Source: Blastococcus aggregatus
GTDB lineage: Bacteria > Actinomycetota > Actinomycetes > Mycobacteriales > Geodermatophilaceae
Reading direction: 5' to 3'
Assembly: GCF_900221005.1 (NCBI RefSeq)
Contig: NZ_OBQI01000001.1
Location: 620,001 to 684,000, forward strand
Length of the DNA: 64,000 nt
Shown: one piece after another, positions 18,165-34,326 of the stretch
How positions within the stretch are numbered: the first letter of the stretch is position 1
How the letters are laid out: each line of letters opens with the position of its first letter
The notes under the pieces: generated by a model
Seen by the model: only the letters and a program-made list of their open reading frames with translations
The model's database searches: none
What the model was told of the DNA's origin: nothing
Translations under genes and position numbers: made by a program

Positions 18165-18189
18165 GGCGCGACCGTACTGCGCACCCGCG

Positions 18190-19587: not shown

Positions 19588-19600
19588 CCACGGTGCATCT
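19580..19600. promoter_or_regulatory. Inverted repeat at the chrA start
   Basis: AGATGCA (19580-19586) and TGCATCT (19594-19600) are perfect 7-bp arms around a 7-base centre. The repeat covers the region between the GGAG ribosome site and the candidate TTG start of chrA. It could be an operator for an internal promoter or an RNA hairpin that limits translation. Confidence 0.4.
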
Positions 19601-19610
19601 CCACGTCCGA

Positions 19611-20621: not shown

Positions 20622-20622
20622 G

Positions 20623-21012: not shown

Positions 21013-21021
21013 ACGCAGATA
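21000..21021. promoter_or_regulatory. ArsR operator overlapping the arsR start codon
   Basis: TATCTGCG (21000-21007) and CGCAGATA (21014-21021) are perfect 8-bp arms around CTCATA. The arsR ATG (21012-21010) lies in the centre and the candidate -10 box CACTAT (21024-21019) overlaps one arm. This is the geometry expected for autorepression of a leaderless arsR-CDF-chrA operon. Form and position match ArsR-family operators; binding is inferred. Confidence 0.7.
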
Positions 21022-21132
21022 GTGCACCGCGGTGCTCCCCCAGGGAAGACCGGTGCGTGGAGTGCGGGCCGAGCCGACCGGCTCCGGCGGGCCGGACCCG
21101 CCGGCCGGGAGGTGACGTTCGCCCGCAGTCGT

Positions 21133-21243
21133 TGTCGGCGAGCGTCACGTTTGCGCACCTGATGAGCTTCGCCGCAATCTCCGTGAGCGCCGGTCTGCGC
21201 CCGCGAGTGTGGAATTGCGGCTGCCCGTGCGTGAGATTGCGGC
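21133..21243. repeat. Left transposon end with five 19-bp transposase-site repeats
   Basis: Five related 19-bp units start at 21138, 21162, 21183, 21203 and 21225. The clear ones are GCGAGCGTCACGTTTGCGC, GTGAGCGCCGGTCTGCGCC and GCGAGTGTGGAATTGCGGC; the second (21162) is degenerate. The pattern is roughly GYGAGSGT, then four to five variable bases, then TTGCGS. Such arrays bind TnsB/TniA. Beyond it, 21244-21429 holds no gene; the only structure is an inverted repeat GTTATGG/CCATAAC (21265-21271, 21282-21288). Confidence 0.85.
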
Positions 21244-21264
21244 CGCGAGGAGCGGATGTGGCCG

Positions 21265-21288
21265 GTTATGGGGTGTCACGTCCATAAC
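21265..21288. repeat. Short inverted repeat inside the left transposon end
   Basis: GTTATGG (21265-21271) and CCATAAC (21282-21288) flank GGTGTCACGT. It lies between the end repeats and the first cargo gene, downstream of that gene's stop, so it could be a terminator or a protein-binding site. Confidence 0.35.
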
Positions 21289-21429
21289 ACCGTCCGGTTG
21301 CCCGGTGGTCGGCACAAGGTCGTGGCTCGAGGCAGTCAACGGCCCGTCCGCAGCGCCACGGGCGGCCGCTACGGCCTCCCACCCACCGCCGCACGGAGCG
21401 GCCTGGAGGTCGAGGCGTGCCCGGCTGCG

Positions 21430-21846
21430 CTACTGGAGCGGGCTGGTGGTGCCGCTGGTGGTGCCGTTCGGCGGGTAGCGCCTCAGCTTGCCGTGCTCGT
21501 CGAGGGCGACCGTGGTCACGCCGCGCGCGGCGAGGACCTCTCCGAAGCGGATGGTGCGGGCCGCTTCGGAGATAGACGCGTCCAGCGGGTCCGTCGCGAT
21601 GAGGTGGGCACGAGCAGCAGCGCGCAGGTACAGGTCCGGGGTGCCGGGTGCGATGTGGAGGTGGACCCTGCGCGTGGCTCCGTACCCGACGATGTCGATG
21701 ACCTGGGCGAACACCGGCTCTTCTTCGTTGCCGGTGATCACGATGGCTCCGGGAACGATGACGCTCGGATCGTGAGCCTCGTCGAGGAGCGTCCAGACGT
21801 AGCCGCGCTCGTCGCCCTGCTGCACATCACAGCGGATGTCCACCAT
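21430..21846 (-). CDS. Hypothetical protein, second gene of a toxin-antitoxin-like pair
   Basis: A 138-residue soluble protein. It starts VDIRCDVQQGDERGYVW, contains PGAIVITGNEEEPVFAQVIDIV and VHLHIAPGTPDLYLRAA, and ends in a Gly/Thr/Ser/Pro tail. Alternating hydrophobic residues suggest a small beta-barrel-like fold. I do not recognise a nuclease or other catalytic motif. Its ATG is two bases after the stop of a 77-residue helical protein, so they are co-transcribed. The small-helical-then-larger order resembles toxin-antitoxin pairs, but toxicity is only a guess. Confidence 0.6.
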   Translation of the reverse strand: MVDIRCDVQQGDERGYVWTLLDEAHDPSVIVPGAIVITGNEEEPVFAQVIDIVGYGATRRVHLHIAPGTPDLYLRAAARAHLIATDPLDASISEAARTIRFGEVLAARGVTTVALDEHGKLRRYPPNGTTSGTTSPLQ

Positions 21847-21848
21847 CG

Positions 21849-22082
21849 TCAGGACCTCCTGCCACGGTCAGCGCTCGACCGCTGGGGCGAGGCCGTGAGT
21901 TCGGCAGCGTGGCGGGCCTGCCTGTCGGCGGACACCCGCGCCCGCTTTGCGGCCGAATCCATCTCACTGGCGGTGATCTCCCCGTGCGCGGCTTCGTACT
22001 CAGCCAGGAACGCATCCAGCGCCGCGAGGCGCTCGCCTTCGGTTCGGTTCACGTCGGGCACGCTACGGCTGGACACGGACAT
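21849..22082 (-). CDS. Small helical, antitoxin-like protein
   Basis: A 77-residue, mostly helical and charged protein: MSVSSRSVPDVNRTEGERL leads into ALDAFLAEYEAAHGEITASEM and a basic helix KRARVSADRQARHAAEL. The pattern of a helix followed by an EAEHG-like segment and a basic tail is common in small antitoxins of actinobacteria. The frame is open further upstream to 22229, but that extension has poor codon use, so I start at ATG 22082. It precedes the 138-residue gene by two bases. Confidence 0.55.
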   Translation of the reverse strand: MSVSSRSVPDVNRTEGERLAALDAFLAEYEAAHGEITASEMDSAAKRARVSADRQARHAAELTASPQRSSADRGRRS

Positions 22083-22309
22083 CTCGAACGGCCGATGACG
22101 TCCCTGACCGCTATCAGCAACGGTTGGCCTCGGTGTCACAGAGGCGACTGCAGTGATGTGTTGTCGTTGCGACCGGGTGAGGCGTGGCCGGTGGATGACC
22201 GCAAGCCGCCCGCATCCGGTAAGGCTCAACTGGCCAGGGCGCTTCGACGGAGCTGACCACCAGCGTCGTCCTCGCTGCCGTGCCGTCGAGTGCGGCGCGT
22301 CGGCCGGCG

Positions 22310-23212
22310 TCAGTACCAGGCCAGAGCCGACGGGCTGGCGACCGAGCCGTCGAAGCTGAGCAGCTGGTCACCAGGGCGCTGGCCGATGACGCCTGCGTGC
22401 AGTCGCTGGCGGACAAGAGCCCGGCGCAGGGGTGCCGGGACGGAGATGGTGCGGTCGCGCAGGTGCAGCTCGGCGCCGTCGGTGGTCAGCTCGCGCACCC
22501 GCAGGCAGCGCAGGAAGCGCTCGTCGTTCAGGCCGACGGCGTGCAGGGCGGTGATGGCCGGCTGCACCGTGGCGCGGGTGTAGACGTCCTCGACGGCCCG
22601 GCGGTGCGCTCCGCTGAGGCCGGCGAGGACCTCCACGACGGTGCGCCGTGCGGTGTCGCTGCTGGTGCGGCCGCTGAGCACCGGCTTGCGCAGCCGGGCG
22701 GCGTTCTTGCTGGCAGGCGGCCTGGCCCACCACTGCCGAGAGGCCTCGGCGAGGGAGAGCCAAGGGTCGCAGTGCTCCCGCAGAAGGTCGGCGAGCTCCG
22801 GCGAGGGCGTCTCCCCGAGGACCAGCCACAGTTGGTGGTCGGCGACCGCGGCGATGGCGATGAGGTCCTCGACGCCGTCGACGCCAAGCCAGCCGGCGTC
22901 CATGACCACCAGCGTGTCGGTGGAGTCGGTGAGCAGGAACGGCACCAGCTGGGTCAGGTCCGCCGACTGTGTGCGGCGGATGACCGCCTGGGTCCCGACC
23001 CGCCCGAGGCCGTCGAGGATGTCGGCGGCCAGGTCGGCCAGTCGGGGCCGGCGGGCGCCGTAGCGGACCCGTACTGGCAGGTAGTTGGGGTGGTCGGCGA
23101 GCTTGGTGGTGAGGTCGCCGAAGGTCGACGGGTCGCGCTCGAGATCGGGGGCGACGACCACCACCGGCGGCTGATGGGCCGGGAGCGGGCCGGCCGGGTG
23201 CAGGTTGGTCAT
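22310..23212 (-). CDS. Unrecognised third protein of the transposition operon (protein C)
   Basis: A 300-residue protein starting at ATG 23212, two bases after the tniB stop. The N-terminal half (VVVVAPDLERDP, later TLVVMDAGWLGVDGVEDLI and LWLVLGETPSPELADLL) looks like an ATPase-type alpha/beta fold that lacks a Walker A loop; VVMDAG sits where a Walker B would be. The C-terminal part (RVRELTTDGAELHLRDRTISVPAPLRRALVRQ, then RPGDQLLSF and SPSALAWY) recalls the strand region of tyrosine recombinases but lacks their catalytic residues. It may be a target-selection or regulatory subunit. No TniQ motif is seen. The abrupt end may mean a C-terminal truncation. Confidence 0.75.
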   Translation of the reverse strand: MTNLHPAGPLPAHQPPVVVVAPDLERDPSTFGDLTTKLADHPNYLPVRVRYGARRPRLADLAADILDGLGRVGTQAVIRRTQSADLTQLVPFLLTDSTDTLVVMDAGWLGVDGVEDLIAIAAVADHQLWLVLGETPSPELADLLREHCDPWLSLAEASRQWWARPPASKNAARLRKPVLSGRTSSDTARRTVVEVLAGLSGAHRRAVEDVYTRATVQPAITALHAVGLNDERFLRCLRVRELTTDGAELHLRDRTISVPAPLRRALVRQRLHAGVIGQRPGDQLLSFDGSVASPSALAWY

Positions 23213-23214
23213 GG

Positions 23215-24075
23215 TTATGCAGCGAACGCCGGCGGGTCGTTGTCGATGGCCGTGATGGCTGCGATGAGGTCCTCGCGGGTGAACGGGCCGGCGCCCGGGT
23301 GCAGGTCGAGCAGCCACTCCAGCAGCAGCGTCCACTGCCGGAGCAGCCCGTGGGCGTGCACCCGGTTGGCCTCGATGAGCAGCCGCGCCGGCGTGGTGGC
23401 CAGCCGCGGGTGCAGCCCGGCCAGGGTGGGTAGCAGCTGCGAGCGGCGGGCGAGGTCGGCGGCCCGGCCCGCGGGGGCGGTCATCACCTGGTGAGGTGTG
23501 AGCAGCGGCTCGAGGCACTTGGTGAACCCCCGCCAGGTGTGCAGCATCGGCTCGCGGGCGATGTTGGCCCGCACGCCGGTGCCGAACAGAGCCACTGCGA
23601 ACTGGGCGCCGGGTGCCTCGAGCAGGGTGCGCAGGTTGCGCAGTACCTCCAGTGGCGCGTTCTGTGCCTCGTCGATGAACAGCAGCATCGGCTCCTCAGC
23701 CAGCAGCTCCCCTAGGGCGTTCTCGTGCTCGCGCTGGCTGAGGTTGCGCACCGGTCGGCCGGCGACCGCGCTGTGCGCCCGTTCCATGAACTGCCGGCCG
23801 TGCCCGGACCGGTTCGTCGGCACGGTGAACACGGCGGTGCGGATGGGGCTGGCTGCTGCCAGCACGGCCAGCGCGGTGGACTTCCCGCACCCGGGCTGTC
23901 CGTCGACGACGACCAGCCGCCGGTTGCGCAGCGCCACTGGCGCGCCGGCGAGCAGTTCGACCAGCTCGGGCGTGAAGACGATGTCGGCCCCGTCGGGCAG
24001 GAACTCTGTGGCGTGCGCGGGCAGGTCACCGCGGGTGGTCACCGGGTGGAACGGCGGCAGGTGCAGGCGGGGCAT
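23215..24075 (-). CDS. tniB: TniB/TnsC-type AAA+ ATPase of the transposon
   Basis: A 286-residue AAA+ ATPase. Walker A is GQPGCGKST (59-67) and Walker B is LLFIDEAQN (Asp135, Glu136); a sensor-like ALFGTG follows. In Tn7, Mu and Tn5053 such proteins (TnsC, MuB, TniB) form filaments on DNA and direct the transposase to a target. ATG 24075 is six bases after AGGAG, which itself overlaps the tniA stop codon, so translation is coupled. A GTG one codon upstream is possible. Confidence 0.9.
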   Translation of the reverse strand: MPRLHLPPFHPVTTRGDLPAHATEFLPDGADIVFTPELVELLAGAPVALRNRRLVVVDGQPGCGKSTALAVLAAASPIRTAVFTVPTNRSGHGRQFMERAHSAVAGRPVRNLSQREHENALGELLAEEPMLLFIDEAQNAPLEVLRNLRTLLEAPGAQFAVALFGTGVRANIAREPMLHTWRGFTKCLEPLLTPHQVMTAPAGRAADLARRSQLLPTLAGLHPRLATTPARLLIEANRVHAHGLLRQWTLLLEWLLDLHPGAGPFTREDLIAAITAIDNDPPAFAA

Positions 24076-24084
24076 CACGGTCTC

Positions 24085-25908
24085 CTACGGGGCGTCAGCG
24101 GCGGTCTGGGGTGCCGCGGCGCGCTGGTGCGCTTCCGCGGCGGCGAGGCGGGCGGCGAAGGAAACGCCCGACGCGCTGCTCTGCGGCGCGATGCTGAGCG
24201 ACGGCGACGACTCGGCCTGGCCGACGGCCTCCTCGGGCGCGTCGGGGGCGGCGTTGGCGGGGACGGCGTGCCGCCCCACGGCCGGTGCCTCGTGGCGGTC
24301 GTCCGCCGCGGCGCCACCCTCGGCGGCGCAGTCGGCGCCCAGCTCGTCGGCGTCGTCGGCGGGCGTGAGCTCGTCGGCCGGGGTCGGCCGAGCCGGGGTG
24401 GCGCCGTGCTCGATGCGGTGGCGGCGCGCGGCCTCGGCGAGGATGGTCTCCACCGTCTCCCGCTGCCGGGCGCGCGTGCGCATGATGGCGCCCTCGGTGG
24501 CGCCGGACATGTCGCTCGTGCGCTCAAGCGTGGCGACGTAGGCGCCGGTGGTCGGGTCGAAGATTTCCAGGTGCCTGTCGTCGCCGACCCACGTGCCGAG
24601 CGCGAAGACGGTGCCGTTGCGCACGCCGACCAGCGCCGGGCCGGAGTAGGTGAGGCCGCCGCCGGGCACGGTGATGCCGTTCCGCTGCTTGGTCGCGGTC
24701 TTGCCGGTCGGCAGGCTCAGGGCGGCGAGCTCGCGGTTGCTGGCGCGCTCGACGGTGTCGCCGGCGTCGATGCGCTCGCACCAGCTGGCGAAGGGCGTCA
24801 GCCCGCCGACAGCGGGGTTGGCCCGCTCGAAGTTGTAGGACAGCGCCCAGCGGTCCAGCCGCGCGGCCAGCTCGTCGAAGGACATGGTGGCCTCGGCGAA
24901 GCGCAGCTTGCCCGAGCGGGTGCGCGGGCCCTCGTTGGAGGCCGGCAGCCCCTGCAGCGCCTCGCGGCGGATGACCTGGTGCATTCGCTCGTGCGCGCCG
25001 TTCTCCCAGGAGGAGTAGGAGTTGGTCGGGTCGACCTCGATGCCCAGGGTCATCAGCAGGGTGCGCAGCTCCTCGGTGAGGAACAGCGCCTCCCGGTCGC
25101 AGCGCAGGGCCCGCGGCAGGCCGCCGCAGAACACCCCGTCGCGGGTCCAGCCGCGGATGGCCTCGCCGAGCAGCGCCAGCACGGTGGCCGCGGTCGGCCC
25201 GGACGCCGGGTCGCCCTCGACGTCGAAGTCGTCGCGCGGGGTGCGGTGGAACAGCCCCCACGCCAGCAGCAGGCCCCGGGAGCGCTCGCGCACCGACACC
25301 CACACCGGCACGGCGGTGGTGCCGTCGGCCAGTGTGGTGCGCACCCGGGGGAAGAACAGGTCGATGGTGAACTGGTCCATCAGCGGGTTCTCCCGGCGGT
25401 CGAGGTACACCCACTGCTGCGGCAGGACCCGCTGGCCCAGGCGCAGGCCGTTGAGCTCGTTGGCACTGAGCTCCTTGAGCACCGCGTCGCGGTAGGTGGT
25501 GCGGTGGCACGGCGGGATGAGGCCCTGCGCGATGGCCAGCATGTGCGCGTTGGTGAGGTCGCGGCCGACGTGGCACAGCAGCACCTCGTCGCTGATGTCG
25601 AGCTTCGAAGTGCGCGCGGTGCGCGGGTCGGGCAGTGGCTCGCCGCCGGCGGCGGCGTTGCGCAGCGCGGCAGCGAGCAGCCCCTCCAGCGTCCGCTTGG
25701 ACGCGCCGGTGCGGGCGCTGATGGCGGCGTAGGCCGCCGCGTCGAGCCGGCCGGCGACCTTGAGCGCGACCAGCTCGCGGGTCGTGCGGACCCGCTGCTC
25801 GTCTGACAGCCGGACGTAGCCGCGCTTGGGTGCGGCGGTGTGCCGGGCGCGGTGCAGCGGGATGACCTTCGCGCCGGAGTCCCGCCGCCGGGTCGTTGTG
25901 GTGCTCAT
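24085..25908 (-). CDS. tniA: TniA/TnsB-type DDE transposase
   Basis: A 607-residue DDE transposase of the rve/Mu family. N-terminal helix-turn-helix domains (about 33-150) are followed by the catalytic core with Asp183 (DQFTIDLFF), Asp271 (ALRCDRE) and Glu307 (ENGAHERMH), exactly D-35-E between the last two. A Mu-C-type beta-barrel follows (about 415-475, GLTYSGPALVGVRNG and LEIFDPTTGAYVATL). The Ala/Pro/Glu-rich C-terminal tail (about 510-607) probably contacts the ATPase. ATG 25908 overlaps the upstream stop as ATGA. It would bind the 19-bp repeats at both transposon ends. Confidence 0.92.
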   Translation of the reverse strand: MSTTTTRRRDSGAKVIPLHRARHTAAPKRGYVRLSDEQRVRTTRELVALKVAGRLDAAAYAAISARTGASKRTLEGLLAAALRNAAAGGEPLPDPRTARTSKLDISDEVLLCHVGRDLTNAHMLAIAQGLIPPCHRTTYRDAVLKELSANELNGLRLGQRVLPQQWVYLDRRENPLMDQFTIDLFFPRVRTTLADGTTAVPVWVSVRERSRGLLLAWGLFHRTPRDDFDVEGDPASGPTAATVLALLGEAIRGWTRDGVFCGGLPRALRCDREALFLTEELRTLLMTLGIEVDPTNSYSSWENGAHERMHQVIRREALQGLPASNEGPRTRSGKLRFAEATMSFDELAARLDRWALSYNFERANPAVGGLTPFASWCERIDAGDTVERASNRELAALSLPTGKTATKQRNGITVPGGGLTYSGPALVGVRNGTVFALGTWVGDDRHLEIFDPTTGAYVATLERTSDMSGATEGAIMRTRARQRETVETILAEAARRHRIEHGATPARPTPADELTPADDADELGADCAAEGGAAADDRHEAPAVGRHAVPANAAPDAPEEAVGQAESSPSLSIAPQSSASGVSFAARLAAAEAHQRAAAPQTAADAP

Positions 25909-26513
25909 CGGGCCGACCTCGGGCTGCTGCAGGCGGCGCACTGGCCGAGCAGGTGCCAGTCGGTGGCGGTGCGGTAGTGGCGGCTGGCCCGCGGGACGCG
26001 GAAGGCCAGCAGTCGCACCCCGGCGAAGGAGGGCAGCTGCCCGCCGAGGGCCAGGTGTGCGGCGACCGCGGCGCGGGCGAACCCGTCCACGCCGACCGAG
26101 CGGGCGGTGTTGGGCTGGGTCAGCTGGTCGATGACCACACCGGCCGGAGTCGCGTACAGCAGCCGCAGGTCCAGCGGGTGCACGCCGTCGATGGCGCCGG
26201 GCACTCCGGCGAGCAGCGCCCGCTGCACGGCGGCAACCGGGCGGGACAGGCCCAGCGACGGGATGTCGCGCAGCACGCTGACGCGGGTGCGGTCGGCGAA
26301 GGTGCGCAGATAGGTGTTCGCGTGACTGGCGGCGTACACGCCCAGGCGCCGGTCCAGCCGGCGGACGTCGCAGACCGCGGCGTGCTCGGCTGCGGCCGCG
26401 ATGAGCTCCATCGCCGTGCTCCGCGGGCCGGCGGACGGGTGGTGCTCGATGACGTCGGCGGCAGCCGCGGCGGCGACCAGCAACGCGGCGACCTGCGTCG
26501 GCGAGGGGCTCAC
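25905..26513 (-). CDS. Unrecognised protein B upstream of tniA
   Basis: A 202-residue protein from GTG 26513, overlapping the preceding gene's stop (GTGA) and the tniA start (ATGA). It is Ala-rich and helical at first (VAALLVAAAAAADVIEHH), then has VCDVRRLDRRLGVYAASHANTYLRTFADRTRVSVLRDIPSLGLS and PAGVVIDQLTQPNTARSVGVDGFARAAVAAHL. It ends with a Cys pair (LLGQCAACSSPRSAR). I recognise no family. Tight coupling to tniA argues for a role in transposition rather than cargo. Confidence 0.75.
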   Translation of the reverse strand: MSPSPTQVAALLVAAAAAADVIEHHPSAGPRSTAMELIAAAAEHAAVCDVRRLDRRLGVYAASHANTYLRTFADRTRVSVLRDIPSLGLSRPVAAVQRALLAGVPGAIDGVHPLDLRLLYATPAGVVIDQLTQPNTARSVGVDGFARAAVAAHLALGGQLPSFAGVRLLAFRVPRASRHYRTATDWHLLGQCAACSSPRSAR

Positions 26514-26893
26514 TGGGCCACCGTCCGGACCCCGGCCGGGTGCGTGCAGCACCGGGTGACGACCGGCCAGCGGGCGGGGTGCACTCGAGCGGGGCAGCTG
26601 GCGCACCGGCTCACCCTTCCCGTCGCCGCGGGCGTGCCGGTGAGGTGCGTGAGCAACGCCGCCGCGAGGACGCGCTGCTCCTCACGGGTGTCGATGCCGG
26701 CCCGGCCGGCCGCGCGGACGCACACCTCGGCGAGTTCGTCGCCGTCCTCGGCGGTGTCGAGTCCGGTGCGCAGCCGGTGCAGCACGTCGGTCGTCGCGGC
26801 AGGCAGTAGGTGGTGCGCCGCGGCGTGGGTGTGAGAGCGGAGCTGTCGGTAGAGGCTGCTGCAGCCGGTCGGCAGGAGGTTGTAGGGAGCCAT
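26510..26893 (-). CDS. Unrecognised small Cys-containing protein A, first gene of the transposition operon
   Basis: About 127 residues from ATG 26893; the frame stays open to an ATG at 26974 through Cys-rich sequence (CAPRHC, GCAPC), so the start is unsure. The visible protein begins MAPYNLLPTGCSSLYRQL, has a helical middle (LHRLRTGLDTAEDGDELAEV) and ends with CASCPARVHPARWPVVTRCCTHP, a possible zinc knuckle. Its stop overlaps the GTG of protein B. It is divergent from the XRE regulator with a 146-base gap that should hold the operon promoter. Confidence 0.62.
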   Translation of the reverse strand: MAPYNLLPTGCSSLYRQLRSHTHAAAHHLLPAATTDVLHRLRTGLDTAEDGDELAEVCVRAAGRAGIDTREEQRVLAAALLTHLTGTPAATGRVSRCASCPARVHPARWPVVTRCCTHPAGVRTVAQ

Positions 26894-27024
26894 GCGGCGG
26901 CACGGTGCGCAGCCAGCAGGCGGCGCAGTCGCGCTGCAGTGCCTCGGTGCACACATGTGCCGCAGTAGTGGCAAGTGTGCTCTCGTAACGCCTTGCGTGC
27001 AGTAGCAGTGGCCAGGTTGCGGTT

Positions 27025-27039
27025 CCTAGCGTCGCCGTT
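27025..27039 (+). promoter_or_regulatory. Leaderless promoter -10 region of the XRE gene
   Basis: TAGCGT (27027-27032) ends seven bases before the GTG start at 27040, with no ribosome site. The 13-mer CCTAGCGTCGCCG (27025-27037) recurs exactly at 31946-31958, again with seven bases between the hexamer and a start codon. Confidence 0.5.
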
Positions 27040-27474
27040 GTGCCGGATGTGCCCCCACGGAGCTACCCGGTCACCGGAGACCCGTTCGGCGCCAAGCCGC
27101 CGAAGGCGCATGGTCCGGCCGACCAGCCCTGGGGACGCAAGACCTTCGACAAGCAGACCATCCCCGACGAGCGGGTCCGCTTTGCGCTGGTCTGGCTTCA
27201 GGACCTGACCAACGCGATCGGCCGCGTGCAGGAGCTCGAGCAGATGCCGCCTGACGAACTCGCCCGGCGGGCCGGCGTGAGCTTGGCCAACTTGCAGGCG
27301 GTGCTGCGCGGCGACCACGCACCCAGCTGGGAGACCTTCACCGCCCTGCTGGCTGTCCTGGAGATGGATCTGCACATCGACGACCGGGCCGACCTCCGAC
27401 CCCGGGTGCAGGAGGAACCCGGTCGTGAACCGTGGTGGCGGGGCAAGCGCCGTCGCCGTCGTCCAGCCGGCTGA
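27040..27474 (+). CDS. XRE-family helix-turn-helix regulator
   Basis: A 144-residue DNA-binding protein. A polar N-terminus (about 45 residues) is followed by a lambda-repressor-like HTH: MPPDELARRAGVSLANLQAVLRGDHAPSWETFTALLAVL (about 69-107). The tail is strongly basic (WWRGKRRRRRP). It is divergent from the transposition operon and 63 bases upstream of an SOS box, so it could repress transposition, the cargo module, or both. Translation probably starts from a leaderless mRNA. Confidence 0.85.
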   Translation: MPDVPPRSYPVTGDPFGAKPPKAHGPADQPWGRKTFDKQTIPDERVRFALVWLQDLTNAIGRVQELEQMPPDELARRAGVSLANLQAVLRGDHAPSWETFTALLAVLEMDLHIDDRADLRPRVQEEPGREPWWRGKRRRRRPAG

Positions 27475-27829
27475 GCACTGCCGACCACGAACCTCGCTGG
27501 TGCCGGCCATCGGGCCGCCTCCCGTTCTCCCCCCTGTTCGAACGCTTGTTCGAAGCGTGCCACGTGCGTTCCAAGATCAGCAAGTCATGCCGTCAGCTGT
27601 AGCTGTTGCATGAGCGGGCCGCCGGGCACCCGGGGCCCGACGGGAGGAAGCGCTACGCCGGTGGCGAGGGTGGGTTCGCTGGTGGACACGGCACACCGTG
27701 CGCTGGGCCTTGCGGCCCAGGACGGTCTCGGTCGTCGCCTACGCTCCCGGGGAATCAGGGATCGGCTCTGTCCGCGCCAGCTCGGCGCCGGTGACGCGGG
27801 GCCGCAACGGGGACTTGTGGAGGTACTCC
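27475..27829 (+). promoter_or_regulatory. Long leader of the predicted defence module
   Basis: This 355-base stretch has no convincing gene; short frames in it have poor codon use. It holds a perfect LexA box at 27537-27554, a TACGCT box at 27741-27746 that could be a second promoter, and a strong ribosome site GGAGG six bases before ATG 27830. The distance from the LexA box to the ATG (about 276 bases) leaves room for a regulated leader. Confidence 0.45.
27537..27554. promoter_or_regulatory. LexA (SOS) box
   Basis: TTCGAACGCTTGTTCGAA is an 18-bp palindrome apart from its four-base centre and contains TCGAAC-N4-GTTCGA (27538-27553), matching the mycobacterial/actinobacterial LexA consensus exactly. 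It lies between the XRE gene and the coiled-coil/GIY-YIG module, suggesting DNA-damage induction of one of these units. Confidence 0.75.
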
Positions 27830-29077
27830 ATGGCACGCAGGCGCGGCTTCTTCGCCGAGATCTCACATCAGGCGGCAGTGGCTGAGAAGAACCGGCAGCG
27901 CGCCCAGGCCGCCGCGACCAAGGAGCAGGCTCGGCGCCAGCGCGAGGCGGAACGCCTCCAGCAGCAGCTCGAGCGGGCCCGCACCCGGCAGTTCATCATG
28001 ACGGAGAAGGAAGAGAAGCAGCTTCACATCGCCGCCCGCGAGGCCGAGGTGGAGCGCCTCAACGGCGAGCTGGCGATGCAGCTGGCCGACATCGACAACG
28101 TGCTGACCGCGACCCTCGAGGTGGACGACTACGTCGACCTCGAGGATCTCCGCAAGAAGGCCAAGCACCCCCGATTCGAGTCTCGCCACAGCTCGCCGAT
28201 CCCGGCCCCTGCACCGATCGAGACGCCACCGGAGCCGGTGTACGTCGAGCCGGACGCGCCCCGCGGCGTCGGCGCGGTGTTCGGCGGCAAGAAGAAGCAC
28301 GCCGAGGCCGTGGCCGCTGCCCAGGCTGCCTTCGCGCAGGCGCACCAGCAGTGGCAACAGGCCGCGGCCGCCGTGCCGATGCAGCAGCTGTCGCAGTTGG
28401 CCGAGCACAAGCAGGCCGAGGACGCCCGACAGGCGAACCTTGCGACCGACCGCGCCCGGTACGACGCTGAGTGCGCCGAGCGGCAGCGGGAGGTCGATGA
28501 GTCGAACGCCGAGCTCGACGAGCTGATTCGGGACCTCGACGCCGGCACTCCGGAGGCGATCGAGGAGTACCTGAGCATCGTGTTCGGGAACTCCGTCTAC
28601 CCGGCCGACTGGCCGTGGCCCCCGGAGTACACCTACGACGCAGAGACCAAGGAGCTGGAGATCCAGCTGCACTTCCCGGCTCCGGAGACCCTGCCCACGA
28701 TCCGGCAGTACAAGTACGTCCGGGCGAAGGACGAGATCACCAGCACCGAGCAGACGCAGAAGGAGCAGCGCGAGCGGTACGCCGCACTGGTGAGCAACAT
28801 GACGCTGCGGACGCTGCACGAGGTGTGGGAGTCCGATCGCCGCCAGAAGGTCGACAGCATCTCGTTGATCGGCTCGGTGAGCCACGTCGACCCGGCCACC
28901 GGGAAGGACACCGTCACGCCGCTGGTCGCAGCCGCTGTCGACCGGCTCACGTTCGAGGACATCGACCTGTCACGTGTCGCACCGGGCGAAACGCTGCGAC
29001 ACCTGGGCGCTGTCGTGTCGAAGAACGCCCACGCGATCACCCCGATCAAGCTCGCCCCCGGCGTCCGCGCCCACTGA
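27830..29077 (+). CDS. Coiled-coil protein with restriction-associated C-terminal domain
   Basis: A 415-residue cytoplasmic protein from ATG 27830 (GGAGG six bases upstream). Residues 1-90 are basic coiled coil (FAEISHQAAVAEKNRQRAQAA). A Pro-rich linker follows (IPAPAPIETPPEPVYVEP), then a second coiled coil (about 150-240). The C-terminal 165 residues (YPADWPWPPEYTYDAETKELEI, TIRQYKYVRAKDEITSTEQ, LRTLHEVWESDR, AVVSKNAHAITPI) resemble a domain I associate with Mrr-type restriction proteins, without the Mrr nuclease. The partner gene begins 21 bases later. It probably forms filaments or a scaffold; recognition is from memory and needs a profile search. Confidence 0.8.
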   Translation: MARRRGFFAEISHQAAVAEKNRQRAQAAATKEQARRQREAERLQQQLERARTRQFIMTEKEEKQLHIAAREAEVERLNGELAMQLADIDNVLTATLEVDDYVDLEDLRKKAKHPRFESRHSSPIPAPAPIETPPEPVYVEPDAPRGVGAVFGGKKKHAEAVAAAQAAFAQAHQQWQQAAAAVPMQQLSQLAEHKQAEDARQANLATDRARYDAECAERQREVDESNAELDELIRDLDAGTPEAIEEYLSIVFGNSVYPADWPWPPEYTYDAETKELEIQLHFPAPETLPTIRQYKYVRAKDEITSTEQTQKEQRERYAALVSNMTLRTLHEVWESDRRQKVDSISLIGSVSHVDPATGKDTVTPLVAAAVDRLTFEDIDLSRVAPGETLRHLGAVVSKNAHAITPIKLAPGVRAH

Positions 29078-29098
29078 CCGACCAACGAGGTCCACGAG

Positions 29099-30565
29099 AT
29101 GCACGGATTCCGGTTCAACACCCCTCCTGGCTGGCCCGCGCCGCCGCCGGGATGGACCCCACCCACCGGTTGGGTACCCGACCCCAGCTGGCCGGCCGCG
29201 CCGGCGGGATGGGCGTTCTGGGTACCGGACGAGACCCCCGCGCCCACCTCCGCAGCTGCTCCTGCGCCGGCCGCGGAGCCGATGGAGGCGCCGCCGGGTA
29301 CCGAAGCGATCGCGGAGCCGGCGCCCATTCCGATCGCACGCCACGCGGCCCCGCAAGAGCCGGAGACTGCGCCCTCCGTGGGCGCCGACGCCGCGGCACC
29401 GGTGTCGACTGAGAGCTCGCGCGTTCGCGAGCTCGAGGCGGAAGTCGAGGCGCTGCGTCGCCAGCTGGCCGAAGCGAACAGCCGCCCCAACGCGACGCGA
29501 CCGGTCGGCGACGACTTCGTCGAGCTCGACGACGCGCGGCTGTTGCAGCAGGTGGGCATCTACCACTACCACCACCCGCTGGAGAACACGGAGCTCTACC
29601 GCGAGCGCCTCGCCGAACTGCGGGAGCAGGTGAAGGAGATGGTCAAGGCCGGCAACGCGATCGAGGCCTCAGACAAGTTCTCGTACAACAACTCCCTCGC
29701 CCTCGGCCGCCGCATGACGGCCGACTTCAGCAAGCTGATGCTGCGGGCGTACAACGCCGAGGCCGACAACTGCGTGCGCTCACTGCGCGCCGGCGCTCTA
29801 CCCGCAGCGACCAAGCGCCTGGAGACGGCCGCCGGCACGATCGCTCGGCTGGGCAAGATGATGGAGATGCGGGTCTCCCCGGACTACCACGCTGTCCGGA
29901 TCACTGAACTGGAACTGACCGCGGACTACCTGTTCAAGCAGCAGGAGGAACGTGAAGCCGCCCGAGAAGAGCGCGAGCGGTTGCGCGAAGAGCGCAAGGC
30001 CGAGCAGGAGCTCGCGCAGCAGCGAGAGAAGCTCGACAAGGAGCGCGCGCACTACGCCAACACCCTTGCTGCACTGCGCGCCCAGGGCGCGGACGCCGAC
30101 CTCGCCGACGTAGAAGCTCGACTGGCCGAGCTCGACGCGGCGATCGAGCTCAACGACTTCCGGGCGGCCAACATCCGTGCCGGTTACGTGTACGTCATCA
30201 GCAATGTCGGTGCCTTCGGTGACCGGGTCGTGAAGATTGGGATGACCCGACGACTCGAGCCCATGGACCGCATCCGCGAACTGGGCGACGCGTCCGTGCC
30301 ATTCCCGTTCGACGTGCACGCCCTCTACTTCTCCGATGACGCTGTCACGCTGGAGAACGAGCTGCACAAGGCGTTCGGCGAGCGCCGCCTGAACCGCGTC
30401 AACGAGCGGCGCGAGTTCTTCTTCGCGACTCCGGAACAGGTCCGCGCGGTCCTCGCCGAGAAGGTTGGGAACCTGCTCGAGTACGCCGCCACACCCGACG
30501 CGGAGCAGTACTACCAGAGCCTGTCCAGCTGGCCGGCCGACGCCCGGACGAGCGCGAAGCCGTAG
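29099..30565 (+). CDS. DUF4041 / T5orf172 (GIY-YIG fold) protein
   Basis: A 488-residue protein. The start has Trp/Pro repeats (PPGWPAPPPGWTPPTGWVPDP, with FWVPDE), like DUF2510 sequences. A short coiled coil follows, then DUF4041 (about 145-300: LLQQVGIYHYHHPLENTELYRERL) with a long Glu/Arg coiled coil (about 280-355). The T5orf172 GIY-YIG domain starts at about 360: GYVYVISNVGAFGDRVVKIGMTRRLEPMDRIRELGD, later LENELHKAFGERRLNRVNERREFF with a candidate metal Glu. GIY-YIG enzymes cut DNA. Together with the coiled-coil gene it forms a two-gene unit. Confidence 0.85.
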   Translation: MHGFRFNTPPGWPAPPPGWTPPTGWVPDPSWPAAPAGWAFWVPDETPAPTSAAAPAPAAEPMEAPPGTEAIAEPAPIPIARHAAPQEPETAPSVGADAAAPVSTESSRVRELEAEVEALRRQLAEANSRPNATRPVGDDFVELDDARLLQQVGIYHYHHPLENTELYRERLAELREQVKEMVKAGNAIEASDKFSYNNSLALGRRMTADFSKLMLRAYNAEADNCVRSLRAGALPAATKRLETAAGTIARLGKMMEMRVSPDYHAVRITELELTADYLFKQQEEREAAREERERLREERKAEQELAQQREKLDKERAHYANTLAALRAQGADADLADVEARLAELDAAIELNDFRAANIRAGYVYVISNVGAFGDRVVKIGMTRRLEPMDRIRELGDASVPFPFDVHALYFSDDAVTLENELHKAFGERRLNRVNERREFFFATPEQVRAVLAEKVGNLLEYAATPDAEQYYQSLSSWPADARTSAKP

Positions 30566-30586
30566 CGCCGCCAGCGTCTGCGGCGG

Positions 30587-30814
30587 CTACCAGCCCCATT
30601 CGCCGCGTCGTGGAGCGCCCGGGGCGCGCTGGTCGAGCCAGAAGGCCAGGAAGCGCCGGGTGGCGGTCAGCGCACGCTGTGGGTCCCGCTGCGCGACCTG
30701 GGCGGCGGACTCACCGCCTAGCAGGTCGGTCGGCCGGTCGACGAACTCCACCGCGTCCTCTGCGGGCACTCCGCACTGCACGAGCAGCTCGATGAGGCTC
30801 CCGGCACCGGACAC
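30587..30814 (-). CDS. Small MbcA/ParS-like protein (possible orphan antitoxin)
   Basis: A 75-residue frame from GTG 30814: LIELLVQCGVPAEDAVEFVDRPTDLLGGESAAQVAQRDPQRALTATRRFLAFW. The segment RPTDLLGGESAAQVAQRD followed by a helix is like the toxin-binding domain of Xre/MbcA/ParS antitoxins, where L-GG-(S/T)P-E-L is typical. A RES-type toxin would be expected beside it, but none is present: its stop lies 22 bases from the end of the convergent GIY-YIG gene. It may be a remnant or a stand-alone gene. Confidence 0.5.
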   Translation of the reverse strand: MSGAGSLIELLVQCGVPAEDAVEFVDRPTDLLGGESAAQVAQRDPQRALTATRRFLAFWLDQRAPGAPRRGEWGW

Positions 30815-31026
30815 GTGGTCACGGTGTCACGGTTCCTCGCAGTCAGGAAGATCCACGTCGCCACGCAGCGAGTGGCCAATGCACGGCGCACGCGACGACC
30901 TACCGAGGTGGCGGCGCGGTGAGGACGCGGCCCGCCACTCAGCGCGCCGCGACCGGCCGCGGCCGCTGCCCGGCCGGCGGGGTGTCGGCGCCGGGTCGAC
31001 GCACCCGGTGGTCGAGGATCCGGAGC

Positions 31027-31905
31027 ATGCCGAGGTCCAGAACCGCACCGGTGGCCTACGCCGACGCGCTGGTCGGTGAGCTCGCCGACATCGAGGCGGC
31101 CTACCTGGCAGTGCTGCAGGCGTCGGCGATCGAGCGCTACGCCCCCGTGCCCGGCGTCTTCGGCCTGCCGCCCTGGGGGTGGGCGGACAGCGATGCCGCC
31201 CTCGAGGCGGCGCGGATGGTTCTGCTGGCACAGGTGCGCGACCTGCGGCCGCGGTTCGAGCTGCTGTTCCGGCATCCGACCCCGGAGGTGGAGCACCGCC
31301 ACACCGAGGCCTTCGAGCTGCTGGAGGGCTGGCTGGTGCGCGCCGGCGGGGACATCAACGCCCCGGGCAGCATCGACTCGGCGACCGGGCGGCTGCGCGC
31401 GGCGGTGCAGACCCTGCGGGACGCCCGTCGGCTGCTGCCCGACGACGACCTGGCGGTGCGGGTGGTCGCCGACACCAACGCCCTCATCGACTGCCCGGAC
31501 CTCACCGTGTACGCCGAGCAGCTCGGGCCGCGGTACCGGGTGCATCTGCTGCCGGTGGTGCTCGGGGAGCTTGACGACCTCAAGCGGTCGGGTCGCACAC
31601 CCGAGCTCCGAGACGCCGCGCGCACCGCCGTGCGCCGGCTCAAGGGGCTGCGCGACGCCGGCGACGTGCGCGCCGGGGTCCGGGTCGCCGGGGACATCTC
31701 TGCGGTGTTCGAGCACATCGAGCCGCGCGACGAGCAGCTGCCCAGCTGGCTGGACCTCACCGTGCCCGACGACCGCCTCGTCGCCGCCGCACTGCTGCTG
31801 CAGAGCGCCCACCCGGGCTCGACGGTGTTCGTGGCTACCGGCGACTTGAACCTGCAGACGAAGCTGGCCGCGGTACGGCTGCCGTTCGTCGAGCCGCCGG
31901 ACTGA
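31027..31905 (+). CDS. PIN-domain protein
   Basis: A 292-residue protein from ATG 31027. The first 150 residues are helical (YADALVGELADIEAAYLAVL, ALEAARMVLLAQVRDLRPRFELLF). The C-terminal half is a PIN ribonuclease domain: VVADTNALIDCPDL with the first Asp, LPVVLGELDDLKRSGRTPELRDAARTAVRRL, LTVPDDRLVAAALLL, and VFVATGDLNLQTKLAAVRLPFVEPP with the last acidic pair. The layout resembles PhoH-associated or PINc proteins more than VapC toxins, which are about 130 residues. No antitoxin is adjacent. RNA cleavage is inferred. Confidence 0.82.
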   Translation: MPRSRTAPVAYADALVGELADIEAAYLAVLQASAIERYAPVPGVFGLPPWGWADSDAALEAARMVLLAQVRDLRPRFELLFRHPTPEVEHRHTEAFELLEGWLVRAGGDINAPGSIDSATGRLRAAVQTLRDARRLLPDDDLAVRVVADTNALIDCPDLTVYAEQLGPRYRVHLLPVVLGELDDLKRSGRTPELRDAARTAVRRLKGLRDAGDVRAGVRVAGDISAVFEHIEPRDEQLPSWLDLTVPDDRLVAAALLLQSAHPGSTVFVATGDLNLQTKLAAVRLPFVEPPD

Positions 31906-32214
31906 GCTTCACCGCCGCGGGGGACGCGCGCCGACGAGTCGCGCGCCTAGCGTCGCCGACATGGCGTACCCGAGCCGGCCCGTGCTGCCCGCGCGACCGG
32001 AGTTCGGTGTCCCTAGGTGGGCCGCTCAGAGACAAACACTGGGGGTCGCTCTGAGGGCGGCCTATGGGACACCGAGCTGGCGAGCTGGCCTCTCTGCGTT
32101 GACCCAGGCTGAGGGACGCCCTCGTCACCCGGTCGAGTGCTCCGCCTGCGTACCTAGCACTCGACTTCTACCGTTCCGGAGGTCGCGACCCGTCGCTCAT
32201 TAGATCGGAGCCCG
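31906..32214 (+). other. Intergenic stretch with leaderless promoter, interrupted ORF and mini-element
   Basis: TAGCGT (31948-31953) sits seven bases before ATG 31961, the same arrangement and 13-mer as at the XRE gene. The frame from 31961 (MAYPSRPVLPARPEFG) runs only about 16 residues before it enters a 64-bp inverted-repeat element at 32008; it continues to a stop at 32203 with no recognisable sequence. It is best read as the 5' end of a gene broken by the mini-element. Confidence 0.45.
32008..32071. repeat. 64-bp mini-element with ends related to the neighbouring IS110 element
   Basis: The left arm TGTCCCTAGGTGGGCCGC (from 32008) extends to TCAGAG and pairs imperfectly with CTCTGAGGGCGGCC plus TATGGGACA (to 32071), around about 18 bases. 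The left arm matches the left end of the IS110 element (TGTCCCTGAGTGGGCCGC at 32441), and the right arm resembles its right end (CCCCATTAGGGACA to 33966). It looks like an internally deleted derivative. Confidence 0.55.
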
Positions 32215-32394
32215 ATGCCCTGGAGCTTCAAGCCCAAGCCCGAGAACGTCATGGTCAAGCCGGAGGTCCAAGCGCGTGTAGTCGAGCTCGCCCGCCAGAA
32301 CAAGGCACGCGGCGTGCGTCTGCTGCGTGAAGAGACTGGACTGCCCCTCACTTTCGCCGCAGTGCTCGTCAACACCTGGCTTGAGGAGAAGTAG
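32215..32394 (+). CDS. Small protein resembling the L7/L12 C-terminal helix pair
   Basis: A 59-residue frame, ATG 32215 to TAG 32394, with CGGAG six bases upstream. The sequence MPWSFKPKPENVMVKPEV leads into ARVVELARQNKARGVRLLRE, then ETGLPLTFAAVLVNTWLEEK. The stretch RLLREETGLPL is close to the IKVVREITGLGLKEA signature of ribosomal L7/L12 C-terminal domains, which also occurs in small actinobacterial proteins of unknown role. It lies between the mini-element and the IS110 copy. Good ribosome site and codon use support coding; function is unknown. Confidence 0.6.
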   Translation: MPWSFKPKPENVMVKPEVQARVVELARQNKARGVRLLREETGLPLTFAAVLVNTWLEEK

Positions 32395-32483
32395 GGCGCC
32401 CCGCCGGGGGCGCTCGGCGGCACATCCCCCCAATGTCAACTGTCCCTGAGTGGGCCGCTTAGACATCCCACGGCTGTAAGTCG

Positions 32484-33716
32484 TCAAGCGGCGATGGAAG
32501 CCTCCATGTTCTCGGCGGGCCAGGCGGTGGTCTCGTCGTAGCGGCGGTGGTGGTGCAGGCAGCCGTGCAGGATGCCGACGAGCCTGTTGGCAAGGGCGCG
32601 CAGGGCTTGGTGGTGGGTGGCGCCGCGGGCGCGCTGGCGGTCGTAGTAGGCGCGGGCGCCCGGTGAGCTGGTAAGCGCGCTGAATGACTGGCAGTAGAGG
32701 GCGTCGGCGAGGCGGCGGTTGCGGGCATAGCGGGCCAGCACGATGCGTCGGGTGCCTGAGGCGCGGGTGATTGGCGCCATGCCGGAGTAGTTCTTCCGTG
32801 CCTTGGAGTCGGTGTAGCGCGTCGGGTCGTCTCCGAACTCGGCGAGCACCCGGGCGCCCAGAACCGGCCCCAGTCCGGGCTGGCTCAGGTAGATCTCAGC
32901 GTCCGGGTGCTGACCAAAACCCGCCTCCACCTGCGCCCTGAGCCCCTCGATCTGGGTCGCCATCTCGGCGATCACCGCGACAAGCGAACGCACTGCGGTG
33001 GCGTAGGCGCCCACCACGCCGGGATGGGCAGCCAGCTGCGGGGCGCGCAGAGTGGCCTGGATCCGTTCGGCGGTGGGCTCGAGGTTGCGTTGTCTCCCGG
33101 CCCGCCGCAGCGCGGCGGCGATCTTGCTCTGGGAGAGCCGTCGGCCGGCTTCTGGAGAGGGGGCGATGGCCAAGATCGCCAGCGCGTCCCGGCCGTCGAG
33201 CTCTTCGCCGAAGGCGGCCAGCGCGGCGGGGTAGAACTCGCGCAGCATGGAGCGCAGCGCGTTGGTCTGCCGCTGCCGGGACCAGATCAGCGACTGATGG
33301 GCACGGGCCAGCACCTTGACGTGTTCGGCGGTTGCGGAGTCACCGGCCACCGGGCGGTGATGGGCCCGGTCTAGTCGCACCAGTTCGGCCAGCACGTGCG
33401 CGTCGCCGGGGTCGCTCTTGGCACCGGAGGTGCCGTGTCGTTCCCGGTAGCGGGCCGCCTGCAACGGATTAACCGCATAGACGATGTAGCCGGCCGCGAT
33501 CAGCGCGCCGACCCACGGACCGCGATCGGTCTCGATCCCGATCGCTACCTGGTCAGCGTCGTCGTCCTCGGTCAAGTGGTCGGCGATCAGGCTGTGCAAC
33601 GTCGCTAACCCTTCGACGCCCTCAGGCAGTCGCCGCCGGGCAAGGCGCCGGCCCTCGGCATCGACGATCTCGATGTCGTGATGGGCCTCGGCCCAGTCAT
33701 CTCCGATAAACAACAC
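32484..33716 (-). CDS. IS110-family DEDD transposase/recombinase
   Basis: A 410-residue bridge-RNA-type recombinase. The N-terminal RuvC-like domain has Asp6/Asp7 (IGDDWAE), Glu62 (IGIETDRG) and Asp102/Asp105 (KSDPGDAHVLAELVRLD). A coiled-coil middle follows. The C-terminal Transposase_20 domain has LSQPGLGPVLGARVLAEFGDDPTRY and YSGMAPITRASGTRR with the presumed nucleophile Ser320. GTG 33716 is ten bases after GGAGG; a longer frame to 33815 adds unlikely sequence. All key residues are present, so it should be active. Confidence 0.92.
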   Translation of the reverse strand: MLFIGDDWAEAHHDIEIVDAEGRRLARRRLPEGVEGLATLHSLIADHLTEDDDADQVAIGIETDRGPWVGALIAAGYIVYAVNPLQAARYRERHGTSGAKSDPGDAHVLAELVRLDRAHHRPVAGDSATAEHVKVLARAHQSLIWSRQRQTNALRSMLREFYPAALAAFGEELDGRDALAILAIAPSPEAGRRLSQSKIAAALRRAGRQRNLEPTAERIQATLRAPQLAAHPGVVGAYATAVRSLVAVIAEMATQIEGLRAQVEAGFGQHPDAEIYLSQPGLGPVLGARVLAEFGDDPTRYTDSKARKNYSGMAPITRASGTRRIVLARYARNRRLADALYCQSFSALTSSPGARAYYDRQRARGATHHQALRALANRLVGILHGCLHHHRRYDETTAWPAENMEASIAA

Positions 33717-33966
33717 TGCGCTACGGCCTCCTCCGGATCGGCACCACCGGCCCGAACCCTGGAGGAGAAGACCGTGGCGACCTAATGGATCAGTGCTCGA
33801 GGCACGACATCCCACCGGCCATCCGCTCCTCCTCGCTCACCGGCGGGGGCACGATCTAAGCGTGGGCCTCGACCAACGGACCCGGGACTGGCAGTGCTCA
33901 CCCGCCGGCGGCTCGGACACCCGATCCTGGTCCAGAAGCGACCGGATGCAGCCCCATTAGGGACAC
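33717..33966 (-). ncRNA. Candidate bridge RNA of the IS110 element
   Basis: The 250 bases between the right end and the transposase GTG have no coding frame and are the expected place for a bridge RNA in IS110-group elements, which is about 180 bases in the characterised IS621. Several GC-rich hairpins are visible. A 14-mer GGCACGACATCCCA at 33801-33814 recurs at 34035-34048, just outside the element, and its core GACATCCCA recurs at 32462, inside the other end. Guide loops would give such short repeats, but I cannot fold it reliably by eye. The 610-base gap 33717-34326 holds only this, the transposon end and the fmdB leader. Confidence 0.4.
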
Positions 33967-34117
33967 CGACCCACACGGCGGCTTCGAGGCCACCCTCGCG
34001 GCCTCCTACAGGGCCGCCAGACGCCTCCGCCTGCGGCACGACATCCCACGACGCTGCCTACACACCCGCCCGCAGGGCTGACGACGGCTTGCGCCAGCGT
34101 CACCGGCGGTGCATCGA

Positions 34118-34227
34118 CCGCAAAGCCACCCTCACGGGCGCAGAGCTGACCCTCGCCGCCGCAAAGCCGCCCACGGGTGCTGCCGAAATCAGACCCTCGC
34201 GCAGCGCAAAGGTGACGCTCGCCGACA
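34118..34227. repeat. Right transposon end with five 19-bp transposase-site repeats
   Basis: Read on the plus strand, five 19-bp units lie at 34118, 34138, 34159, 34182 and 34204, spaced 20-23 bases apart. Examples are CCGCAAAGCCACCCTCACG, GCGCAGAGCTGACCCTCGC and GCGCAAAGGTGACGCTCGC. They are inverted relative to the left-end units. The outermost unit sits five bases from the terminus at both ends. Confidence 0.88.
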
Positions 34228-34326
34228 GTCGTGGACGGGCGGGCGCGTGATGGCGCATCATTGGCAGTCGCCGGGTGCGAGTGCCAGCCCGGCGCCCACC
34301 TCCGCTCGACCAGGGAGCCCACGCAC

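What the first reader, a model, noticed from the sequence alone, without database searches (positions are those of the whole stretch)
27830..30565. Predicted two-gene DNA-targeting defence module in the transposon cargo
A coiled-coil protein with a C-terminal domain resembling Mrr-associated restriction proteins lies 21 bases before a DUF4041/T5orf172 GIY-YIG protein that also has Trp-rich repeats and long coiled coils. The pairing of a scaffold and a nuclease fold, carried on a mobile element and next to a LexA box, fits an antiphage or anti-plasmid system. I know of no described system with this pair.
Basis: inference. Interest (0 to 1): 0.8.

Follow-up and report, generated by a model that had tools for sequence, protein, structure and literature searches.

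The report
Two-gene SNIPE-family phage defence operon
Two adjacent genes on a mobile element make a DNA-cutting protein of a recently described phage-defence family (SNIPE) and a partner protein whose relatives are mostly fused to a different DNA-cutting domain; the pair recurs side by side in many bacteria, which suggests a two-part version of a defence so far described as one gene.

Summary
Gene A (27830-29077, 415 aa) ends 21 bases before gene B (29099-30565, 488 aa). E. coli SNIPE is one membrane-anchored gene; B shows no such anchor and starts with a Trp/Pro-rich module. A matches the non-catalytic part of PADLOC's mREase_IV model; 21 of 24 longer relatives scanned are fused to an Mrr nuclease domain, which A lacks.

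The pair is conserved: each of the 80 best of 403 B relatives in GTDB genomes has A upstream, mostly overlapping or within 10 bases. In 394 class genomes all 9 full-length nuclease-less A genes have B next (one a remnant), but only 8 of 29 DUF4041 genes are paired. Neighbours match many more defence models than control genes. The LexA box is perfect here but not conserved; the transposon has terminal repeats and a target duplication. My paper searches showed no two-gene form.

Best reading: a two-gene variant of SNIPE in which A, a module shared with Mrr enzymes, targets and/or restrains an unanchored SNIPE nuclease. The operon is well supported; the mechanism is inferred.

The parts
27830..29077 (+). 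Gene A, 415 aa: nuclease-less relative of Mrr-fused type IV enzymes (helical hairpin plus alpha/beta domain)
28550..29059 (+). A residues 241-410, alpha/beta domain, covered by most matches to Mrr-fused relatives
29099..30565 (+). Gene B, 488 aa: SNIPE/PD-Lambda-1 family nuclease without a predicted transmembrane segment
29099..29233 (+). B residues 1-45: Trp/Pro-rich N-terminal module, in the place where E. coli SNIPE has its membrane anchor
29732..29899 (+). DUF4041 domain of B
30179..30457 (+). GIY-YIG (T5orf172/MUG113) nuclease domain of B
30353..30355 (+). Codon of E419 of B, aligned to catalytic E414 of E. coli SNIPE; invariant in 73 of 73 rows
27538..27553 (.). Perfect LexA-type box upstream of A; local to this element, not conserved with the pair
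21133..21156 (+). Left terminal inverted repeat of the transposon
34204..34227 (-). Right terminal inverted repeat of the transposon
21128..21132 (.). Target duplication GTCGT, left copy
34228..34232 (.). Target duplication GTCGT, right copy
23215..24078 (-). AAA ATPase of the transposon (TniB-like; label recalled)
24085..25941 (-). rve-type transposase (TniA-like; label recalled)

Best explanation
The two genes form one anti-phage operon, a two-subunit variant of SNIPE. B is the effector: DUF4041 binds DNA and GIY-YIG cuts it. In place of the membrane anchor that keeps E. coli SNIPE off the host chromosome, this variant uses a separate protein, A. A is a coiled-coil plus alpha/beta module that in other proteins sits in cis in front of an Mrr nuclease; here it acts in trans on B, holding it in check and bringing or licensing it onto incoming phage DNA. 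Shown here: family membership of B by sequence, conserved pairing within its clade, tight spacing, co-divergence, defence-rich neighbourhood of related loci, no predicted membrane segment in B, no nuclease domain detected in A. Inferred: physical contact of A and B, that A targets or restrains B, DNA binding and cutting by this B, and that the substrate is phage DNA.
For: B: PADLOC PD-Lambda-1 E 5.6e-108, 32% identity to an annotated E. coli PD-Lambda-1 over 341 columns with E414 aligned to E419, invariant in 73 of 73. Pairing: the 80 best of 403 B relatives all have A upstream on the same strand; in 72 cleanly parsed loci 41 overlap and 61 lie within 10 bases, range -8 to +66. From A's side, the 9 matches that span all of A in 394 class genomes have B next, 8 by a long match and one by a remnant beside a DDE transposase. 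Distances of A and B correlate r 0.853, best of 1000 permutations 0.135. The 74 paired B form one clade with 0 of 24 single-gene SNIPE inside, support only 0.42. Module exchange: 21 of 24 other A relatives scanned carry Mrr_cat; 0 of 73 short A carry the tested nuclease motif. Defence context: 120 PADLOC models at E 1e-10 matched among 125 nearest neighbours against 3 among 125 control proteins. No anchor: hydrophobicity peak 0.94 in B, 3.37 in E. coli PD-Lambda-1, 0 of 79 paired B at 1.6 or more. SNIPE without its membrane segment is toxic and its inactive form sits on the nucleoid (PMC13190303, passages), so an unanchored B plausibly needs a restraint.
Against: No experiment. 21 of 29 DUF4041 genes in 394 class genomes have no A within the 1.5-kb flanks searched, and five of these have the same Trp/Pro-rich start as paired B (by eye), so neither SNIPE proteins nor that module always need A; 34% of SNIPE homologues in print lack a membrane segment and are treated without a partner gene. 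The 80 loci were chosen for likeness to B of this window, so 80 of 80 describes this clade, not all SNIPE. Co-divergence may partly reflect species history. No convincing solved match was found for the fold of A, so its biochemical role is open. A complex could not be modelled.
Confidence: 0.55

Rival explanations
1. Type IV-like restriction: A reads modified bases (as the label of its Mrr-fused relatives implies) and recruits B, so the pair cuts modified DNA in the cytoplasm irrespective of entry. The GIY-YIG nuclease simply replaces Mrr.
For: A matches PADLOC's type IV methyl-directed model; Mrr_cat in 21 of 24 other A relatives scanned; most of the 18 plasmid records with an A relative are annotated restriction endonuclease there.
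Against: The methyl-directed label is annotation only; B keeps DUF4041, which in E. coli SNIPE probably contributes to tape-measure recognition; no convincing solved match of A was found, which leaves a reader fold open.
Confidence: 0.25
2. Toxin-antitoxin logic: B is a toxic nuclease, A a dedicated inhibitor made first and released on infection, giving abortive infection.
For: A precedes B, with coding overlap in 41 of 72 loci; SNIPE without its membrane segment is toxic; B lacks such a segment.
Against: Most A relatives scanned are fused in cis to an unrelated nuclease (21 of 24), which fits a targeting module better than an inhibitor of B; E. coli SNIPE acts at DNA entry (abstract).
Confidence: 0.12
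3. B is an ordinary one-gene SNIPE held at the membrane by its Trp/Pro-rich start; A is an accessory that widens range or is an independent defence gene travelling with it.
For: Five unpaired SNIPE relatives share the Trp/Pro-rich start (by eye); SNIPE N-termini are known to vary and may act as adapters.
Against: 80 of 80 adjacency in the clade, 41 of 72 with coding overlap; 9 of 9 full-length short A with B or its remnant; paired B separate from single ones in the tree (weak support).
Confidence: 0.08

Closest known systems
SNIPE / PD-Lambda-1 (E. coli; PMC9519451, PMC13190303)
   Same: DUF4041 plus C-terminal GIY-YIG with the catalytic Glu; defence family
   Different: One gene with an N-terminal membrane anchor in E. 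coli; here two genes, no predicted membrane segment, Trp/Pro-rich start, and A as regular neighbour
Mrr-fused type IV enzymes (PADLOC mREase_IV PDLC03663)
   Same: Helical part and alpha/beta domain of A, about 28-37% identity to the eleven Mrr-fused-type relatives L011-L021
   Different: A ends before the Mrr_cat domain; the nuclease is a separate GIY-YIG protein
Mrr-TerD variants of A-module proteins (L181-L183)
   Same: Same A module
   Different: Carry Mrr_cat plus TerD in one chain

Membership tests
SNIPE / PD-Lambda-1 (gene B) | DUF4041 domain | tested here: met
   PF13250 E 8.8e-18
SNIPE / PD-Lambda-1 (gene B) | C-terminal GIY-YIG with catalytic Glu (E414 in E. coli) | tested here: met
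   T5orf172 and MUG113; E419 aligned to E414, invariant in 73 of 73
SNIPE / PD-Lambda-1 (gene B) | Whole-protein model match | tested here: met
   PDLC03976 E 5.6e-108, residues 103-476
SNIPE / PD-Lambda-1 (gene B) | N-terminal membrane anchor (present in 66% of homologues in print, so typical rather than defining) | tested here: not met
   Hydrophobicity peak 0.94 against 3.37 for E. coli; simple scale, not a trained predictor
SNIPE / PD-Lambda-1 (gene B) | Works as a single gene | not testable with these tools
   Genomic pairing in 80 of 80 argues against, but sufficiency needs an experiment
SNIPE / PD-Lambda-1 (gene B) | Cuts phage DNA at entry, gives phage protection | not testable with these tools
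   needs an experiment
Type IV Mrr enzyme (gene A) | Mrr-associated N-terminal and central module | tested here: met
   PDLC03663 E 1.8e-39, profile 19-381 of 544
Type IV Mrr enzyme (gene A) | Mrr_cat PD-(D/E)xK nuclease domain | tested here: not met
   No Pfam match in A; tested motif in 0 of 73 short A; Mrr_cat in 21 of 24 other relatives
Toxin-antitoxin pair | B toxic alone, neutralised by A | not testable with these tools
   needs an experiment

The most novel reading that the evidence does not exclude
A is a general sensor or guide subunit that has been coupled to unrelated nucleases: in cis to Mrr (with or without TerD) and in trans to a SNIPE-type GIY-YIG protein. The operon would be a two-component SNIPE class, widespread in Actinomycetota, in which self/non-self discrimination has passed from a membrane anchor to a protein partner whose fold found no convincing solved match here.
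Probability: 0.45. Interest if true: 0.78.

Novelty: new variant of a known kind. Interest (0 to 1): 0.64.

Why it matters
SNIPE was reported in 2026 as a one-gene nuclease that spares the host by sitting in the membrane. A coherent clade of relatives has no predicted anchor but a conserved partner gene. That makes a sharp question testable: how does an unanchored SNIPE avoid cutting its own chromosome? It also links SNIPE to Mrr-type restriction through a shared module, and suggests that annotation which calls PD-Lambda-1 from B alone overlooks a partner gene in these bacteria.

Tried and rejected
LexA control as part of the system: rejected. The box is perfect in the window, but no match with 0-1 mismatch was found in up to 1 kb upstream of A in 80 loci (71 hold the full 1 kb), nor in same-genus L207. 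Five of the 80 have a 2-mismatch match within 400 bases (L029, L073, L076, L095, L103), and same-genus L208 has one in its 4.2 kb.

Transposon as the vehicle of the family: not supported. No relative of the window's AAA or rve transposase lies in the 82 loci searched (80 with up to 9 kb on each side of the match, plus two same-genus pairs of 4.2 kb).

Flanking HTH gene (27040-27474) and PIN gene (from 31051) as parts: no relative in the same 82 loci.

Trp/Pro-rich start of B as the docking site for A: not supported. 66 of 73 B rows have a GW motif ahead of the DUF4041 core, others pair without it, and five unpaired SNIPE have it (by eye).

Homology of A to B: none convincing; hhalign aligned 41 columns of coiled coil at probability 44%.

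A shared FG-(R/K) motif: by a loose pattern of mine, 38 of 73 A and 12 of 24 single SNIPE have it, 0 of 73 paired B. It could mean that a coil segment moved from B to A, but only 1 of 24 other A relatives has it; a lead only.

Solved structures: by sequence no match of A better than E 0.36 or of B better than 0.23. Foldseek found none at E 0.001 for A or B (the GIY-YIG protein Slx1 is among weak rows). VIA-align best Z for A is 7.4 (2qx2, rmsd 3.8, 101 aligned), within the range of common arrangements; the alpha/beta domain was not folded and searched alone.

Empty site: flanks searched apart in 11 same-genus loci; the left flank was not found. In L198 window positions 18189-19545 and 34210 onward lie 75 bases apart, so the stretch 19546-34209 is absent there, which is more than the transposon.

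Rows dropped: 8 of 80 loci (L069, L076, L078, L079, L083, L087, L102, L106) left out of spacing, length, alignment and tree counts because gene ends were cut, shifted or unclear; 1 of 80 B and 2 of 80 A left out of the hydrophobicity count as too short; L147 (fragment) left out of the tree. Of neighbours only the nearest suitable gene on each side within 3 kb (125) was scanned; 98 second-nearest were not. Genes were called with a simple codon-usage script of mine that recovered 155 of 160 A and B ends. One PADLOC hit among neighbours, PD-Lambda-1, is probably the B gene of L078 itself. Control: 125 of 166 called genes, random draw. The hydrophobicity scale is no trained predictor: 2 of 78 A (L075, L103) reach 1.6-1.7.

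Viral contigs: a scan with A gave 1 relative, and 1 of the 80 best of 374 viral B relatives has A; it is the same contig, and its A is split. Phage records: no match to A. A search of 396 phylum genomes with the A alignment gave matches in 19; these were not sorted further for pairing.

Full report
Observation. A is 27830-29077 (415 aa) and B is 29099-30565 (488 aa), 21 bases apart. Against three close relatives dN/dS is 0.25-0.34 for A and 0.17-0.18 for B, so both are under selection as proteins. They lie between 24-nt inverted repeats (21133-21156 and 34204-34227, 96% complementary) flanked by the 5-base duplication GTCGT, with AAA and rve-type transposase genes inside. The cargo claim holds. 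The window's genome has one copy of each gene, and 3 of 23 genomes of its genus, itself included, have A.

What B is. B carries DUF4041 and a T5orf172/MUG113 GIY-YIG domain and matches PADLOC's PD-Lambda-1 models at E 5.6e-108. This family came out of a functional selection in E. coli (PMC9519451, passages seen) and was studied as SNIPE (PMC13190303; abstract, section 9 and passages seen): a membrane-anchored nuclease that cuts phage DNA during injection, whose DUF4041 promotes DNA binding, and whose form without the membrane segment is toxic. B aligns to an annotated E. coli PD-Lambda-1 (L023) at 32% over 341 columns; E414, needed for defence, corresponds to E419 of B, invariant in 73 of 73 aligned B. 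The anchor is missing: the highest 19-residue hydrophobicity is 0.94 in B, 3.37 in the E. coli protein, and 0 of 79 paired B reach 1.6. Instead B starts with a Trp/Pro-rich module; residues 1-40 are predicted with pLDDT of about 90. The paper reports that 34% of SNIPE homologues lack a membrane segment, so this alone does not exclude B from the family.

What A is. A has no Pfam match and no solved relative by sequence (best E 0.36). It matches PADLOC mREase_IV over positions 19-381 of 544. In 394 genomes of the class, 55 have an A relative. Nine matches span all of A (from residue 1-4 to 413-415); the others stop earlier, and those looked at mostly continue into a nuclease domain. Of 24 of these others scanned (20 fetched plus L116, L117, L020 and the Agrobacterium plasmid protein in L027), 21 carry Mrr_cat; three of the 21 also carry TerD (L181-L183). 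Three have no Pfam match: L170, L180 (cut short, beside an IS66 transposase) and L184. None of 73 short A carries the tested nuclease motif (though that strict pattern also missed 9 of 12 long forms in that call; Pfam gave the fuller count), and short and long forms separate cleanly in a midpoint-rooted tree (73 and 12 tips; support 0.64 and 1.0). The predicted structure is a helical hairpin (4-89, 153-238) and an alpha/beta domain (241-410), mean pLDDT 91.8; no convincing solved match was found.

The pair is conserved. A scan of GTDB genomes with a B alignment found 403 relatives and kept the best 80. All 80 have an A relative upstream on the same strand. In the 72 loci with clean gene ends the spacing is -4 in 31, +2 in 12, -1 in 9, overall -8 to +66; 41 overlap and 61 lie within 10 bases. 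A is 409-430 aa long in these. By my count of the record titles 69 of 80 name Actinomycetota, 10 name other phyla (such as Chloroflexi, Nitrospira, Verrucomicrobia, Gemmatimonas), all of these metagenome bins where misbinning is possible, and one is unspecific. From A's side, the 9 full-length short A all have B next; in G088 only B residues 18-46 remain within 18 kb, beside a DDE transposase. A Kocuria rosea plasmid has the pair with a one-base overlap, annotated hypothetical protein and DUF4041 protein. Distances of A and B correlate at r 0.853 (best of 1000 permutations 0.135). The 74 paired B form one clade with none of 24 single-gene SNIPE inside, though with support of only 0.42.

Results that limit this. 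The 80 loci were picked by likeness to this B. In the 394 class genomes 29 have DUF4041 and only 8 of these are paired. The 21 unpaired ones have various starts: Trp/Pro-rich, DUF2510-like, transmembrane or other (read by eye). So two-gene SNIPE is one clade among several. Among the best 80 viral-contig relatives of B only one has A, and a search of phage records found no A. In 72,556 plasmid records 184 have a B relative and 18 an A relative; the pair was seen in one of them, Kocuria rosea.

Defence context. The 125 nearest neighbours of the pair in these loci match 120 PADLOC models at E 1e-10 or better. Names among the 25 shown include JetA, IetS, QatA, QatC, UzuA, AbiEi, AbiEii, Old, SoFic, type II methyltransferase and mad3, so about a dozen proteins at least (my estimate; the tool counts models, not proteins). 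One further hit, PD-Lambda-1, is probably the B of L078. The same scan of 125 genes from 20 arbitrary stretches of class genomes gave 3 models, all PbeA, one member each. By Pfam the neighbours include 4 phage integrases and 3 rve proteins.

Mechanism. Shown: B is a SNIPE-family protein by sequence, it lacks a predicted anchor, A is its regular neighbour in this clade, and A's module is otherwise mostly joined to another nuclease. Inferred: A and B bind, and A supplies in trans what the anchor supplies in E. coli SNIPE, namely restraint and aim. The strongest rival is that A reads modified DNA and the pair is a type IV restriction system with an exchanged nuclease. An inhibitor-only role for A, or an accessory role, fits less well.

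Novelty. In the held library DUF4041 with phage occurs in three papers and PD-lambda-1 in twelve; further searches are. Nothing that I saw describes a partner gene, but I saw passages of five papers and the rest only as listings, and the library holds open-licence papers only. A Clavibacter survey reports PD-Lambda-1 in 95 of 114 genomes (PMC11856565, passages). The Clavibacter locus seen here (L081) is paired, so that survey may hold many two-gene forms (inference). A Streptococcus thermophilus PD-Lambda-1 gives phage resistance (PMC12322248, passages). The fifth is a review (PMC12904381, passages). I call the finding a new variant of a known kind.

Noticed in passing
L181:1908-4157, L182:1969-4182, L183:1502-3916: A-module proteins that carry Mrr_cat and a C-terminal TerD domain in one chain.
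   Followed up: partly
window 27538-27553: Perfect LexA-type palindrome upstream of A, without a match of 0-1 mismatch in the related loci; possibly SOS control peculiar to this element.
   Followed up: yes
window 32484-33815: IS110-family transposase inside the larger transposon.
   Followed up: no
window 19546-34209: In same-genus L198 the flanks of this stretch are 75 bases apart, so a larger region than the transposon is missing there.
   Followed up: partly
window 30919-31905: PIN-domain gene (PF13638) downstream of the pair; no relative in the 82 related loci.
   Followed up: partly
L122-L146: Single-gene actinobacterial SNIPE relatives have diverse starts, including Trp/Pro-rich and DUF2510-like ones (by eye), as if the start were an exchangeable targeting tag.
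   Followed up: partly
L108:8200-9450: B of this pair is interrupted: only its Trp-rich start was found, followed by a DDE transposase, while A is full length.
   Followed up: yes
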